Positions 1 through 4,461 of a stretch of 9,006 bases of DNA are shown in pieces. The notes under the pieces were generated by a model. That model was not told the origin of the DNA. It did not search any database and saw nothing but the letters and a program-made list of their open reading frames with translations. The first letter of the stretch is position 1. Each line of letters begins with the position of its first letter. Both the position numbers and the translations under genes were made by a program. The stretch lies in assembly GCA_903909415.1 (NCBI GenBank), contig CAIVVS010000276.1:1-9006 (forward strand). Direction: 5' to 3'. The stretch is from an uncultured Pseudomonadota bacterium (GTDB lineage: Bacteria; Pseudomonadota; Gammaproteobacteria; Burkholderiales; SG8-39).

Positions 1-729
1 ATTGAGGTCGCGCCCGCCGGTGCCGATCGCCTGGCTGATGCCCGCGCCCAGGCGGTCCACGAGCGATGTGACCTGCTGCAGGCCGGTGCCGGAGGCGGCG
101 ATGCAGCCGACCGCGCCGCGGCGCACGCGGTTCGCGAAACCCAGCGGCACGCCGTCGATGATGGCGGTGCCGCAGTCCGGGCCCATCAGCAGCAGCTTCT
201 TGTCCGCGGCCAGGCGCTTCATCGCGACCTCGTCGGCCAGCGCGACGTTGTCCGAGAACAGCATCACGTTCAGCCCGGACTTGAGCGCCTTGGTCGCCTC
301 GGCAGCGGCGTACTCGCCGGGCACCGAGACCAGCGCGAGGTTGGGCGCGGCGCGCGCGGCCATCGTGGACGAGGCCAGCGCTGAGGCCAAGGTGCGCGGC
401 GCGACCGGACCGGAAGCAGCCGTCGTGCCCGTTGAGCTTGCAGGACCGGACGCCAGCAGCGCATCGGCCTTGCCCTGCGCGGCCGCCGCGGCGGCATCGC
501 TGCGCGCGCGCACGATCACCAGCAGGTCGCTGGGACCGGGCTGCGCGACGCCGGGGATGGGCCCCTCGCCCAGCAGGCCGGTCTCGCGCAGCAGCGCGAG
601 GTTGCCCTCGGTGGCCATGATGGCCGAGGCCTGCTCGACGCCGGGGACTTCCAGCAGCGCGGCCGACAACTGCATCAGCGCGACCGAGTCGCGGTAGCTG
701 TTCTTGAGTATGCGGATGCTCTGTGCCAT
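1..729 (-). CDS. fdrA: FdrA-family acyl-CoA synthetase-like / carbamoyltransferase subunit, N-terminal 243 codons (cut by window edge)
   Basis: The C-terminal half lies outside the window; family members are about 510-560 residues. The frame is open for all 243 codons. The ATG at 729 follows an AAGGA 9 bases upstream and lies 23 bases after the amidase stop, so the two genes are probably co-transcribed. The N-terminal part (SIRILKNSYRDSVALM, then a GNLALLRETG stretch near 42-51) matches the start of E. coli FdrA. Residues about 85-128 are a low-complexity Ala/Ser/Thr/Gly/Pro linker. A succinyl-CoA-synthetase-alpha-like domain then follows, with PGEYAAAEA (137-145), MLFSDNV (156-162), MGPDCGTA (182-189), PLGFAN (195-200), AASGTGLQQVT (211-221) and AIGTGGRDL (234-242). 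E. coli FdrA (AllF) is a subunit of the AllFGH oxamate (oxalurate) carbamoyltransferase; partner genes of DUF1116 and DUF2877 type and a carbamate kinase would be expected past the left edge. Family assignment is firm; substrate is inferred. Confidence 0.87.
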   Translation of the reverse strand, partial: MAQSIRILKNSYRDSVALMQLSAALLEVPGVEQASAIMATEGNLALLRETGLLGEGPIPGVAQPGPSDLLVIVRARSDAAAAAAQGKADALLASGPASSTGTTAASGPVAPRTLASALASSTMAARAAPNLALVSVPGEYAAAEATKALKSGLNVMLFSDNVALADEVAMKRLAADKKLLLMGPDCGTAIIDGVPLGFANRVRRGAVGCIAASGTGLQQVTSLVDRLGAGISQAIGTGGRDLN

Positions 730-752
730 GAACGTGTTCCTTCGGGTGTGGC

Positions 753-2156
753 TCAGTGGATCGGCGGCAGGCCGAGCGGACGCGCCTGCTCGACCAGCTT
801 CATCGCGATAAGGATGGACGGCTCCGAGTAGTGCGGGCCGATTACCTGCAGGCCCACCGGCAGCCCGGCGCGCGTCAGTCCCGCGGGCACGCTGCCGGCC
901 GGCAGGGTCGCGATCGACACGCAGAAGGTCGGCGCGATCCAGTCGATGTAGTTGGTGAGTTTCCTGCCGTTCACTTCGTCGGGGAAGTTCTGCTCCACCG
1001 GGAAGGGCGCGACCGGCGTGGTCGGCGCGAGCAGCAGGTCGTACTTCGCGAACAGCTCGCGGAAGCGGTGCCAGATCAGCGCGCGGGTGCGCTCGGCGCG
1101 GGCGATGGACTGGATGTCCAGCGCGAGGCCGGCGCGGATGTTGCCCGCGAGGTTGGGGCCGATGATGTCCAGCTTGTCCAGGCGGTCCCAGTGGTTGGCG
1201 AGCATGGACTCGCCGCGCAGCGCGATGAAGGCATCACGCGCATCGGAGAAGTCGCACTGGATCTCCTCCACCGTCGCGCCGGCGGCCGCCAGACCGAGCG
1301 CGGCCTCGCGGCACAGCGCCGCGACTTCCGGGTCCACGCCTATGCCCACCATGTCCGGGCACCAGCCGACGCGCTTGCCCTTCATGTCCTTGGCGGCATT
1401 CACCAGGTCGAGCGCGCTTTTCCACGGCGCCTCGCGCGACAGCGGCGACAGCGGCGTGAGGCCCTTCATCGCGTCCAGGAACAGCGCCGCATCGGTGGCA
1501 TTGCGCGCCATCGGGCCGGCCACGCTCTGGTCGTGCCAGGGCAGGTTGGCCGGGTGCTGCGGGATCAGGCCGGGCGTGGTGCGCAGGCCGACCACGCCGC
1601 AGAAGGCGGCCGGGGTGCGCACGCTGCCGCCGAAGTCCGTGCCCTGCGCCAGCGGCACCATGCGCGCGGCCAGCGCCGACGCGCCGCCACCGGTGGAGCC
1701 GGAGGCGGACATGCGTTCGTCCCAGGGATTGCGCGTCGCACCGAACACCGCGTTCACGGTATTCGCGCCGGCGGCGAACTCGGGCGTGTTGGTCTTGCCG
1801 ACGATCAGCGCACCGGCGGCGCGGATGCGGCGCACGATCTCCGCGTCCTCGGTCGGCACATGGTCGGCGTAGAGCTTGGAGCCCCAGGTGGTGCGGATAC
1901 CCGCCGTCGGCGTGACGTCCTTGATGCCCACGGGGACACCGGCCAGCATGCCGGTAGTCGCGCCCTTGGCCACCGCCTCGTCCACCGCCTTGGCCGCGGC
2001 GCGCGCCACGTCCTCCGACAGGGTGCAGAAGGCATTGAGCCTGGGGTTGGTTCGCGCAATGGCCGCGAGGTGGGCCTCCAGCACTTCGGTGGCGCTGGCC
2101 TTCTTGCCCTTGACCAGCGCGACGAGGCTGGCGGCAGATTCCCGGGTCAAATCCAT
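753..2156 (-). CDS. Amidase-signature family hydrolase (malonamidase/AtzE-like amidase)
   Basis: Complete, 467 residues, the usual length for the family. It hydrolyses an amide or ureide C-N bond in the cytoplasm; no signal peptide is seen. The Ser-cisSer-Lys triad is present: Lys79 in VGIKD, cis-Ser154 in SGSTGGG and nucleophile Ser178 in GTDFGGSVR. The Ser-Ser spacing of 24 is the family norm. The common GGSSGG motif reads GSTGGG here, so the second Ser is Thr155. The C-terminal part has LLLAPTTPVAPFP (374-386) and GLPVGLQVIGP (431-441), typical of the fold. The ATG at 2156 is chosen because AAGGAG sits 8 bases upstream; a frame-compatible GTG at 2183 lacks a ribosome site. It leads fdrA by 23 bases and diverges from the cyanuric acid hydrolase gene. 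Candidate substrates are malonamate or ureidomalonate (barbiturate route) or 1-carboxybiuret/biuret (cyanurate route). No AtzG-like small partner gene is visible, which argues mildly against true AtzE. Confidence 0.9.
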   Translation of the reverse strand: MDLTRESAASLVALVKGKKASATEVLEAHLAAIARTNPRLNAFCTLSEDVARAAAKAVDEAVAKGATTGMLAGVPVGIKDVTPTAGIRTTWGSKLYADHVPTEDAEIVRRIRAAGALIVGKTNTPEFAAGANTVNAVFGATRNPWDERMSASGSTGGGASALAARMVPLAQGTDFGGSVRTPAAFCGVVGLRTTPGLIPQHPANLPWHDQSVAGPMARNATDAALFLDAMKGLTPLSPLSREAPWKSALDLVNAAKDMKGKRVGWCPDMVGIGVDPEVAALCREAALGLAAAGATVEEIQCDFSDARDAFIALRGESMLANHWDRLDKLDIIGPNLAGNIRAGLALDIQSIARAERTRALIWHRFRELFAKYDLLLAPTTPVAPFPVEQNFPDEVNGRKLTNYIDWIAPTFCVSIATLPAGSVPAGLTRAGLPVGLQVIGPHYSEPSILIAMKLVEQARPLGLPPIH

Positions 2157-3349: not shown

Positions 3350-3350
3350 C

Positions 3351-3383
3351 TGGACTGGGCCCGGGCTTACTCGCCCAGGTCCA
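3351..3383. terminator. Shared hairpin between convergent genes (possible bidirectional terminator)
   Basis: TGGACTGGGC (3351-3360) pairs with GCCCAGGTCCA (3373-3383): ten base pairs with one bulged base and a 12-base loop. It begins just after the cyanuric acid hydrolase stop and reaches into the last codons of the barbiturase-type gene. Neither strand has a U-run, so it is not a textbook intrinsic terminator. It may halt or pause convergent transcription or protect the mRNA 3' ends. Confidence 0.45.
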
Positions 3384-4461
3384 CGATGGCGATCACCGGG
3401 CCGCCACCCTGCGGACCCTGGTGCATCGCGTCCACGGACACGAACACGGCAGGGTCGCCGATCGCGCACGCGGCCACGCCGCCGACCGCCGCCTTGGAAT
3501 GGCGGTGGTGGTGCACGTCGGAGTCGTCCAGCATGATCTGGCGGCGGCCGCGCAGCTTGGCGTTGTGGTCGGCCTCGCACTTGAGGAACACGTTCACCAG
3601 CTTGCCGTTCAGGTCCGAGGCGCGCGCGCGCTCGGGCAGATTGAGGCCGGCGTTGCGGATCGCGTCGTAGATGCCGTCGATGTCCAGCGCATCCTTCATC
3701 ACGCTGTGGCCGATGCGGAAACGCCCGCCCGCGCCGGCCTTGTTGCCCAGCAGGACGATCTGCGCCTGGATCAGCTCGACGCCCGAGGAGCAGGACGCGA
3801 CCGACGAGTACAGGTCCAGGTCCTTGCAGATCTGCTCGGCGCGCGGCATGGAGATCTCGCCCAGCGCCACGCCAATGCCCAGCGCGGTGGTGCCGTTGGA
3901 CACGCCCATGGAGTCATGCACCTCGCAGGCCACGGTCTGGCCGCGCGAATGCGCGTCGGCCACCCAGTCCACCGTCAGCAGCGGCGTCTTGGTCTGCACG
4001 TAGTGCACGTCCTTCGGGTCGGTGATGCCGGCGTCCTTCATCGCGGCGCGCACGCCGTCGGCGACGACCTCGACCATGCGCACGCGGCCGATGTCCTCGG
4101 GCTTGAGTTCGGCGCTCATCGCCGTGCCCATCACCAGACGGTCCTTGTCCTTGGGGCCGGTCTTGGCATTGCGCGCGAACACGGTGGCGTGCGGCGTGAT
4201 CACGCCGTCGCAGCCACCCGACCAGACCATGGGGATCTGCTTGATGTCGGCGGCGCTGCGCTTGCCGTGCTTGGAGACGACCGCGCGGAACGCCTGGTCC
4301 GAGAGGATGCGGGTGAAGTCGTTCACCCCGCCGTTGCCCTCGGTCTTGCCGATCACCGCGATGACTTCATCGGCGGTGAACTGCCCGCGCTTGATGCACT
4401 CCTCCAGCCCGGAGGCGTCCATCACGCTCTTGATCTCGACTTTCGCGACTTCGATGGCCAT
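3367..4461 (-). CDS. bar: Barbiturase-type ring-opening amidohydrolase (AtzD/barbiturase family)
   Basis: Complete, 364 residues. Barbiturase opens barbiturate to ureidomalonate in oxidative pyrimidine breakdown. It has the same three-repeat plan as its convergent neighbour, with Lys39/Ser81 (GKTEGNGGVND, WSGGCDG), Lys158/Ser225 (HYVQTKTPLLT, SSVASCSSGVEL) and Lys294/Ser342 (NVFLKCEAD, VSVDAMHQGP). It differs from cyanuric acid hydrolases as barbiturase does in my memory of the Rhodococcus enzyme: WSGG-x-DGVI-x-PHAT, SNG-x-TALGI in place of SRGASALG (Arg replaced by Asn189), RIGHSVMKD, DDSDVHxHR, and MHQGP in place of EHQGP, losing the metal-loop Glu. The ATG at 4461 has AGGAG 7 bases upstream. 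It lies 53 bases after hyuB on the same strand, probably in the hyuAB operon. The family is firm; the barbiturate substrate rests on recalled similarity, and another cyclic ureide is possible. Confidence 0.85.
   Translation of the reverse strand: MAIEVAKVEIKSVMDASGLEECIKRGQFTADEVIAVIGKTEGNGGVNDFTRILSDQAFRAVVSKHGKRSAADIKQIPMVWSGGCDGVITPHATVFARNAKTGPKDKDRLVMGTAMSAELKPEDIGRVRMVEVVADGVRAAMKDAGITDPKDVHYVQTKTPLLTVDWVADAHSRGQTVACEVHDSMGVSNGTTALGIGVALGEISMPRAEQICKDLDLYSSVASCSSGVELIQAQIVLLGNKAGAGGRFRIGHSVMKDALDIDGIYDAIRNAGLNLPERARASDLNGKLVNVFLKCEADHNAKLRGRRQIMLDDSDVHHHRHSKAAVGGVAACAIGDPAVFVSVDAMHQGPQGGGPVIAIVDLGE

What the first reader, a model, noticed from the sequence alone, without database searches (positions are those of the whole stretch)
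1..4461. Possible phosphorolytic, energy-saving barbiturate route: barbiturase, FdrA carbamoyltransferase, amidase
FdrA (AllF) belongs to the oxalurate/oxamate carbamoyltransferase in E. coli. Ureidomalonate, the barbiturase product, differs from oxalurate by one CH2. Transfer of its carbamoyl group to phosphate would give malonamate plus carbamoyl phosphate (ATP through carbamate kinase). An amidase-signature enzyme such as malonamidase would then release malonate and ammonia. The window has barbiturase, amidase and FdrA genes together. I know of no described route of this kind, but that is from memory only.
Basis: inference. Interest (0 to 1): 0.72.

Follow-up and report, generated by a model that had tools for sequence, protein, structure and literature searches.

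The report
Barbiturate breakdown genes with carbamoyltransferase
A bacterial gene cluster seems to break down barbiturate, and perhaps the herbicide residue cyanuric acid, by transferring a carbamoyl group to phosphate so that some energy is saved; sister clusters in other bacteria support this, but no enzyme has been tested.

Summary
The gene calls hold: barbiturase (3367-4461), amidase, and the first 243 residues of FdrA/AllF, cut by the window's left edge.
The predicted partner exists in relatives. L149 reads HyuA-HyuB-barbiturase-ABC transporter-amidase-AllF-AllG; L148 the same without the amidase; L147 and L048 barbiturase-AllF-AllG. Operons L042, L046 and L058 add AllH and carbamate kinase, two of them also malonyl-CoA decarboxylase and synthetase.
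The window's AllF falls in a 28-row clade (support 99) that excludes E. coli's chromosomal AllF. There 24 of 28 loci carry barbiturase, cyanuric acid hydrolase, a triuret hydrolase-like or allophanate hydrolase gene; outside, 5 of 49. Forty-nine plasmid records match a cyanuric acid hydrolase-AllH-AllF-AllG-carbamate kinase block (47 over at least 80%); none holds AtzE.
One reading fits: this subfamily removes the carbamoyl group of ureidomalonate, or its isostere 1-carboxybiuret, as carbamoyl phosphate.
Weak points: no biochemistry; AllH and carbamate kinase are missing from window-type operons; the amidase could hydrolyse ureidomalonate directly. I found no published description in the library searched.

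The parts
1..729 (-). AllF (FdrA), N-terminal 243 residues, open at the window edge; carbamoyltransferase subunit candidate
   Evidence: 62.7% to L149, 59.3% to L148, 58.8% to L034, 56.1% to L048; tree
753..2183 (-). amidase-signature hydrolase (likely start 2156); ureidomalonase or malonamate/allophanate hydrolase
   Evidence: Pfam PF01425 E 6.2e-106; 59.6-60.7% to the two pieces of the L149 amidase, up to 57.8% to amidases of barbiturase operons; catalytic residues kept
   Evidence: Arg where Azorhizobium CAH has Arg188
3367..4461 (-). barbiturase
   Evidence: Asn at the Arg188 column as in barbiturase 5hwe; catalytic Lys/Ser/Glu kept
4515..6407 (-). HyuB, hydantoinase/oxoprolinase B subunit (first possible start 6611)
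   Evidence: Pfam PF02538 E 1e-132; 79.2% to L149
6404..8536 (-). HyuA, hydantoinase/oxoprolinase A subunit (first possible start 8632)
   Evidence: Pfam PF01968 and PF05378; 78.9% to L149 and L148
8758..9006 (-). LysR-type regulator, C-terminal end, cut by the window edge
   Evidence: PF03466 E 1.6e-06 at 28.1 bits

Best explanation
The window is a pyrimidine-ring catabolic locus. Barbiturase opens barbiturate to ureidomalonate. AllF, with an AllG expected just outside the window, then transfers the terminal carbamoyl group to phosphate, giving malonamate and carbamoyl phosphate. Carbamate kinase, encoded elsewhere, makes ATP from carbamoyl phosphate. The amidase hydrolyses malonamate to malonate and ammonia, and in some relatives malonyl-CoA synthetase and decarboxylase take malonate to acetyl-CoA. 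The same AllF-AllG can serve the cyanuric acid hydrolase of the window: 1-carboxybiuret to allophanate and carbamoyl phosphate, because 1-carboxybiuret and ureidomalonate differ only by NH for CH2. Shown here: gene identities, gene orders in relatives, clade membership, residue matches. Inferred: the AllG outside the window and every reaction of the AllF complex and of the amidase.
For: AllG follows AllF in L048, L147, L148 and L149. Operons L042, L046 and L058 hold barbiturase-carbamate kinase-AllH-AllF-AllG; L042 and L058 continue with malonyl-CoA decarboxylase and malonyl-CoA synthase (family searches on L042 only). L148 has AllF-AllG where L149 has amidase-AllF-AllG, and L048 keeps weak relics of permease and amidase between barbiturase and AllF. 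AllF clade: 24 of 28 rows near barbiturase, CAH, TrtA-like or AtzF genes against 5 of 49 outside; without eight rows that I took because of a ring-opener, 20 of 24 against 1 of 45. CAH and TrtA both release carboxybiuret (PMC7948467, passages). 49 plasmid records match the CAH-permease-AllH-AllF-AllG-carbamate kinase block, 47 over at least 80%; 24 of the 26 records with an AtzF at 99% or more are among them, and 0 of 49 hold AtzE at E 1e-60. E. coli AllFGH makes the N-carbamoyl amide acid oxalurate from oxamate and carbamoyl phosphate in vitro, and its genes are needed for the opposite direction in the cell (PMC11326118, parts 1-2 of 6 read).
Against: No enzyme was tested. In E. coli AllF-AllG without AllH restored only 7% of oxamate formation (PMC11326118); AllH is missing from the window-type loci (0 of 5) and was not found anywhere in genomes G771, G004 and G496, whose completeness is not told. 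Carbamate kinase is not in those loci either; full-length copies exist elsewhere in G771, G810, G802 and G001, none in G004 or G496. 28 of 80 barbiturase loci have the amidase and no AllF, so the amidase alone is probably enough to use ureidomalonate. The absence of any locus with both among the 80 is not significant (p 0.11). The AllF tree does not reject a single origin of all barbiturase-linked AllF (AU p 0.152), so repeated recruitment is not shown. L101, outside the clade, also has a cysteine hydrolase beside AllFGH and carbamate kinase, which my TrtA label did not count. RO1 itself is nearest to L003 (84.6%), not to L148 or L149.
Confidence: 0.58

Rival explanations
1. Split labour: the amidase is a classical ureidomalonase (ureidomalonate to malonate and urea), and AllF-AllG serves only the cyanuric acid hydrolase, splitting 1-carboxybiuret.
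For: The amidase is of the family found in 28 of 80 barbiturase loci without AllF; the window holds a cyanuric acid hydrolase next to amidase-AllF; CAH-AllFGH-carbamate kinase blocks exist on 49 plasmid records and on pSR8.
Against: L147, L148, L149, L034 and L048 carry barbiturase and AllF with no cyanuric acid hydrolase in the fetched region, and L148 has AllF-AllG but no amidase there.
Confidence: 0.22
2. The AllF complex is an ordinary oxamate carbamoyltransferase for oxalurate, placed by chance or for joint nitrogen control next to the ring-opening genes.
For: E. coli AllFGH has that activity (PMC11326118, parts 1-2 of 6); the authors of PMC12625717 read allFGHK next to triuret genes as oxalurate degradation.
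Against: The window's AllF is in a clade apart from E. coli chromosomal AllF (L146), and 24 of 28 of the clade's loci hold genes that make or use carboxybiuret, ureidomalonate or allophanate. Comammox contigs with allFGHK lack trtB, the carboxybiuret decarboxylase (PMC12625717, section 8 part 1).
Confidence: 0.12
3. AllF-AllG without AllH is not a carbamoyltransferase but an acyl-CoA synthetase-like enzyme (AllF resembles succinyl-CoA synthetase alpha), for example activating malonate or malonamate.
For: AllF matches succinate-CoA ligase alpha families and Pfam Ligase_CoA; AllH is missing in the window-type loci.
Against: L042 and L058 carry a separate malonyl-CoA synthase beside AllF; carbamate kinase accompanies AllF-AllG even where AllH was not found, as in L150, L152, L154, L155 and L188.
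Confidence: 0.06

Closest known systems
Oxamic transcarbamylase AllFGH with carbamate kinase AllK of E. coli (Kim and Kim 2024, PMC11326118)
   Same: AllF and AllG are homologous; L042-type operons also hold AllH and carbamate kinase.
   Different: Neighbour genes point to ureidomalonate or carboxybiuret; the AllF belongs to another clade; window-type loci lack AllH and carbamate kinase.
Oxidative pyrimidine catabolism: barbiturase and ureidomalonase (Soong 2001, seen only as a reference in PMC4051656; its products recalled)
   Same: Barbiturase is the nearest solved relative of RO1; an amidase follows.
   Different: The known second step is hydrolysis to malonate and urea (recalled); here a carbamoyltransferase is added or replaces the amidase.
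Cyanuric acid pathway AtzD-AtzG-AtzE-AtzH-AtzF of Pseudomonas sp. ADP
   Same: RO2 is 70% identical to AtzD; plasmid blocks have an AtzD-type first enzyme and often an AtzF on the same record.
   Different: AllFGH plus carbamate kinase accompany the hydrolase in the plasmid blocks where AtzGEH stands in pADP-1; no AtzE on those records.
Triuret pathway TrtA-TrtB-BiuH-AtzF (PMC7948467) and its allFGHK-linked form in comammox (PMC12625717)
   Same: A TrtA-like hydrolase, AllFGH, carbamate kinase and sometimes AtzF occur together in AllF relatives.
   Different: The published reading of allFGHK there is oxalurate degradation; here carboxybiuret is proposed as the substrate.

Membership tests
Barbiturase | Nearest solved relative is barbiturase rather than cyanuric acid hydrolase | tested here: met
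   RO1 483 bits to 5hwe against 304
Barbiturase | Catalytic Lys156/Ser226/Glu230 (Azorhizobium numbering) and non-Arg at 188 | tested here: met
   Lys, Ser and Glu kept; Asn at the 188 column as in 5hwe (read by eye); PMC4051656 prints Gln for the barbiturase subgroup, which does not match 5hwe in my alignment
Barbiturase | Hydrolyses barbiturate, not cyanurate | not testable with these tools
   needs assay
Cyanuric acid hydrolase (RO2) | AtzD-type sequence with Arg188 | tested here: met
   534 bits to 4bvq, Arg kept; NCBIfam NF052395 528 bits over cut-off 360; RO1 also passes that cut-off (446.8 bits), so the model does not separate the two
Oxamic transcarbamylase AllFGH | AllF, AllG and AllH all encoded together | tested here: inconclusive
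   window holds only part of AllF; relatives L147-L149 have AllF-AllG without AllH; L042, L046 and L058 have all three
Oxamic transcarbamylase AllFGH | Carbamate kinase in the operon | tested here: not met
   0 of 5 window-type relatives, two of them with short contigs; 3 of 3 L042-type; the window itself is cut and cannot show it
Oxamic transcarbamylase AllFGH | Carbamoyl transfer between oxamate and phosphate | not testable with these tools
   needs assay
Amidase-signature hydrolase | Lys-cisSer-Ser triad | tested here: met
   Lys88, Ser163, Ser187 (positions named from recalled motifs)
Ureidomalonase or malonamidase | Substrate specificity | tested here: inconclusive
   window departs from 4 of 99 columns invariant in 28 amidases of AllF-free loci, all 4 shared with L149 (which departs at 21, part of it assembly noise), but single amidases of that set depart at up to 7; malonamidase E2 is only a distant match (about 89 bits)

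The most novel reading that the evidence does not exclude
A subfamily of AllFGH is a general ureido-acid phosphorylase: it splits 1-carboxybiuret (from cyanuric acid or triuret) and ureidomalonate (from barbiturate) into carbamoyl phosphate plus allophanate or malonamate, replacing AtzEG, TrtB or ureidomalonase and yielding ATP through carbamate kinase. It spreads as a cyanuric-acid cassette on conjugative plasmids.
Probability: 0.5. Interest if true: 0.82.

Novelty: new variant of a known kind. Interest (0 to 1): 0.7.

Why it matters
It would give AllF/AllG proteins, now annotated as acyl-CoA synthetase FdrA and DUF1116, a role in breaking down barbiturate, cyanuric acid and triuret. It would show that these nitrogen-rich compounds can yield ATP instead of only ammonia. 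It would also explain why carbamate kinase sits in cyanuric acid and triuret clusters, why comammox contigs can lack the carboxybiuret decarboxylase, and how plasmid clusters with cyanuric acid hydrolase can lack AtzE. The idea is testable with three purified proteins.

Tried and rejected
Amidase specificity shift: window and L149 share Asp217 to His and three other changes at columns invariant in 28 amidases, but leave-one-out shows that single members of that set depart at up to 7 columns, so I drop it as evidence. Mutual exclusion of amidase and AllF among 80 loci: 0 loci with both, p 0.11, too weak. Independent origin of the L042-type and window-type barbiturase-AllF linkage: AU test p 0.152, not shown. 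RO2 as a recent foreign insert: GC and GC3 like its neighbours, no support. The label AllHq that I gave to the protein before fdrA on pSR8 was wrong: it has no Pfam match, and its L187 relative weakly matches a transporter family below the cut-off; a DUF2877 (AllH) gene of pSR8 lies at 72683-73654, outside the stretch used for L099. An apparent frame change in the L149 amidase lies at 10 Ns in the assembly, so it is not read as a broken gene. E. coli complete genomes: no near match to the plasmid block. FdrA of L048 as query in the class of G004: 3 of 369 genomes with a match at E 1e-30, G004 itself included; the two others, seen in L096 and L097, had no ring-opener in 12 kb.

Not done: a search of the 5.8-billion-protein set and structure predictions, because context, not homology, was the open question. 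Paper searches, ten in all: barbiturase with FdrA 0 papers; barbiturase with carbamoyl phosphate 0; cyanuric acid with carbamate kinase 1, PMC12625717; wider mixes, of which I saw capped listings. The library holds only open-licence PMC papers.
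Full report
What is there. The window carries, on the minus strand, a LysR C-terminus, HyuA, HyuB, barbiturase RO1, an amidase and the N-terminal 243 residues of AllF (FdrA), and on the plus strand a second ring-opening amidohydrolase RO2 between barbiturase and amidase. RO1 is nearest to the solved barbiturase 5hwe (483 bits against 304) and has Asn at the column of Arg188 of the Azorhizobium cyanuric acid hydrolase, as does 5hwe. RO2 is nearest to AtzD (534 bits; 70.3% identity to AtzD of pADP-1) and keeps the Arg. 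PMC4051656 states that Arg188 is Gln in the barbiturase subgroup (passages); my alignment shows Asn in 5hwe. No genome is held for the window, so the genes left of AllF could not be read.

Canonical operon. A scan of genome contigs with RO1 gave 110 confirmed relatives, of which the best 80 were kept. In the fetched flanks of those 80 (many shortened by contig ends) I find HyuA with HyuB in 25, the amidase in 28, malonyl-CoA decarboxylase in 6, a protein resembling cytosine deaminase in 23 and a molybdenum hydroxylase large subunit in 12 (one representative each of the last two). This fits cytosine or uracil passing through barbiturate to malonate. The fullest form is LysR-HyuA-HyuB-barbiturase-ABC transporter-amidase (the binding protein was family-searched, the ATPase and permease named from sequence). 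What HyuAB does is not known.

AllF next to barbiturase. AllF lies in 5 of the 80 loci: L034, L048, L042, L046, L058. A search from the AllF side with an alignment of these five (E 1e-60) matched 17 of 385 genomes of the class of G006 and 33 of 101 relatives of G004. Of 60 hits, 59 contexts were fetched (the sixtieth is L048). Six of the 59 hold a ring-opener: L147, L148, L149 and L162 a barbiturase, L187 and L198 a cyanuric acid hydrolase type, the last only 43% identical to its reference. L162 is L034 again. L149 has HyuA-HyuB-barbiturase-SBP-ATPase-permease-amidase-AllF-AllG, that is, the window's order with the ABC transporter where the window has RO2, and AllG where the window ends. L148 has the same order without the amidase; L147 has barbiturase-AllF-AllG; L048 keeps weak relics of the permease (39% over 161 residues) and of the amidase C-terminus (43% over 44 residues, E 4e-5) between barbiturase and AllF. 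The window's HyuA and HyuB are nearest to L149 and L148 (78-79%), though its RO1 is nearest to L003 (84.6%); I read window, L148 and L149 as one operon lineage. L042, L046 and L058 read M24 peptidase-isocitrate dehydrogenase-like-barbiturase-carbamate kinase-AllH-AllF-AllG; L042 and L058 go on with malonyl-CoA decarboxylase and malonyl-CoA synthase, and all three have a TRAP solute-binding protein (Pfam and NCBIfam run on L042 only). L042 and L058 are titled Gammaproteobacteria, L046 Marine bacterium B5-7.

The AllF clade. A tree of 77 AllF rows (quick search, SH-aLRT only; L162 and L206 left out as duplicates) puts the window in a 28-row clade with support 99. Neighbour labels in the clade: barbiturase in 6 rows including the window, cyanuric acid hydrolase in 3 including the window, TrtA-like in 8, AtzF in 12; 24 of 28 rows carry at least one. 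The four without are L189, L081 and L086 (short stretches of 3.1 and 3.6 kb) and L156 (AtzF fragment at the contig start, under my threshold). Outside, 5 of 49 rows carry one: L042, L046, L058, L099, L198. Eight rows entered the tree because of a ring-opener (window, L048, L034, L098 inside; L042, L046, L058, L099 outside). Without them the counts are 20 of 24 against 1 of 45. The genome rows were found with an alignment of barbiturase-linked AllF, so the sample leans towards their kin. My TrtA label needs over 60% identity to the L142 hydrolase; the cysteine hydrolase beside AllFGH in L101, outside the clade, was not counted. E. coli chromosomal AllF (L146) is outside. Holding all nine barbiturase-linked rows together is not rejected (p 0.152).

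What the neighbours share. TrtA and AtzD both release 1-carboxybiuret (PMC7948467, passages). The hydrolase of L142 is nearest to TrtA (269 bits to 6xix against 243 to 6azo, which I take to be of the same series as the BiuH entry 6AZQ; 6XIX, 6XJE and 6XJ4 are TrtA entries), though the NCBIfam model that fits best is biuret amidohydrolase, below its cut-off. Carboxybiuret is HOOC-NH-CO-NH-CO-NH2, ureidomalonate HOOC-CH2-CO-NH-CO-NH2 and oxalurate HOOC-CO-NH-CO-NH2 (established chemistry). Taking the carbamoyl group from the first gives allophanate, the substrate of AtzF; from the second malonamate; from the third oxamate. This explains AtzF beside AllF better than oxalurate does.

Plasmids. Forty-nine of 72,556 plasmid records match the block cyanuric acid hydrolase-NCS2 permease-AllH-AllF-AllG-carbamate kinase, 47 of them over at least 80% of its length, 46 at 99% or more identity, so this is one recent spread and not 49 events; 36 are typed conjugative. 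Its ring-opener is nearest to the cyanuric acid hydrolase 6bum (582 bits). Twenty-six records hold AtzF at 99% or more; 24 of these are among the 49, one (NZ_CP084773) holds another fdrA-DUF1116-ring-opener-carbamate kinase block, and one (NZ_CP129863) is not among the 49, while the next accession of that species, NZ_CP129864, holds part of the block. AtzE at E 1e-60 occurs in 37 records, all listed, none among the 49. pADP-1 reads atzD-atzG-atzE-hpxZ-atzF. Plasmid pSR8 of Aminobacter sp. SR38 reads fdrA-DUF1116-ring-opener-carbamate kinase-amidohydrolase-BMP ABC transporter-DUF2877; two further short ring-opener pieces are annotated on it. trzD was mapped to that contig (PMC8407692, part 1 of 2 read); that the full-length ring-opener is trzD is my inference. 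[quoted passage not shown] So the phenotype evidence is slight. Whether SR38 has AtzE or AtzF on its chromosome was not checked.

Difficulties. E. coli needs AllF, AllG and AllH for full activity; AllF-AllG restored 7% (PMC11326118). AllH was not found in the 5 window-type loci (L034 and L048 are on short contigs) nor in genomes G771, G004 and G496; in G810, G802 and G001 the only copy is on another contig. Among eight AtzF-labelled loci without TrtA, AllH was found in 3 and carbamate kinase in 7, some contigs being short; among eight TrtA loci both were found in all eight. So AllF-AllG without a nearby AllH recurs in this clade. Either AllH is dispensable, or supplied in trans, or these proteins do something else. 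Nine genomes were searched for carbamate kinase; of the six not of the L042 type, four hold a full-length copy away from the barbiturase locus (G771, G810, G802, G001), and G004 and G496 show only partial matches.

Prior work. Comammox and archaeal ammonia oxidisers carry allFGHK beside biuH, in comammox also trtA and atzF, and comammox contigs lack trtB; the authors read this as oxalurate degradation (PMC12625717, section 8 part 1 of 2 and passages). That is the nearest published observation and partly anticipates the association. I found no paper joining barbiturase with FdrA or carbamoyl phosphate, and only that one joining cyanuric acid with carbamate kinase.

Verdict.

Noticed in passing
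window 2243-3349 (+): An AtzD-type cyanuric acid hydrolase sits convergent to the barbiturase (17 bases apart) and divergent from the amidase, where L149 has the ABC transporter genes.
   Followed up: yes
L098 5300-12941 (NZ_CP103667.1) and 48 further plasmid records: A block of cyanuric acid hydrolase, NCS2 permease, AllH, AllF, AllG and carbamate kinase on mostly conjugative, mostly enterobacterial plasmids; in L098 IS26 copies and an atzF lie near.
   Followed up: partly
L048 4659-5308: Weak relics of an ABC permease and of the amidase C-terminus between barbiturase and AllF.
   Followed up: partly
L042, L046, L058: An M24 peptidase-like and an isocitrate/isopropylmalate dehydrogenase-like gene precede barbiturase in all three operons; role unknown.
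   Followed up: no
L143 6644-11268: Methylocystis iwaonis plasmid carries an FdrA-like gene (annotated oxidoreductase) and a DUF1116 gene inside a nitrogen-starvation cluster (MSMEG_0565 to 0572, Nit6803); a very long branch in the AllF tree.
   Followed up: no
L144 8530-12600: E. coli IncF plasmid: DUF2877-fdrA-DUF1116, then a 1551-base hypothetical gene, then carbamate kinase.
   Followed up: no
L034: Contig filed under a Klebsiella pneumoniae metagenome assembly but with barbiturase 84% identical to the window's; the label looks wrong or the bin is mixed.
   Followed up: no
L147 12243-13397 and L082 1657-2796: A gene with a methionine-synthase-like look (my reading of the sequence, no family search) lies convergent after AllG in both.
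   Followed up: no
L227 44918-47146 (pSR8): A second carbamate kinase gene sits directly beside atzC on the atrazine plasmid.
   Followed up: no
PDB 3dmy and 3clq: Solved structures related to AllF (3dmy, Protein fdrA) and AllG (3clq, uncharacterized protein) exist; both could be used to look for a carbamoyl phosphate site.
   Followed up: no
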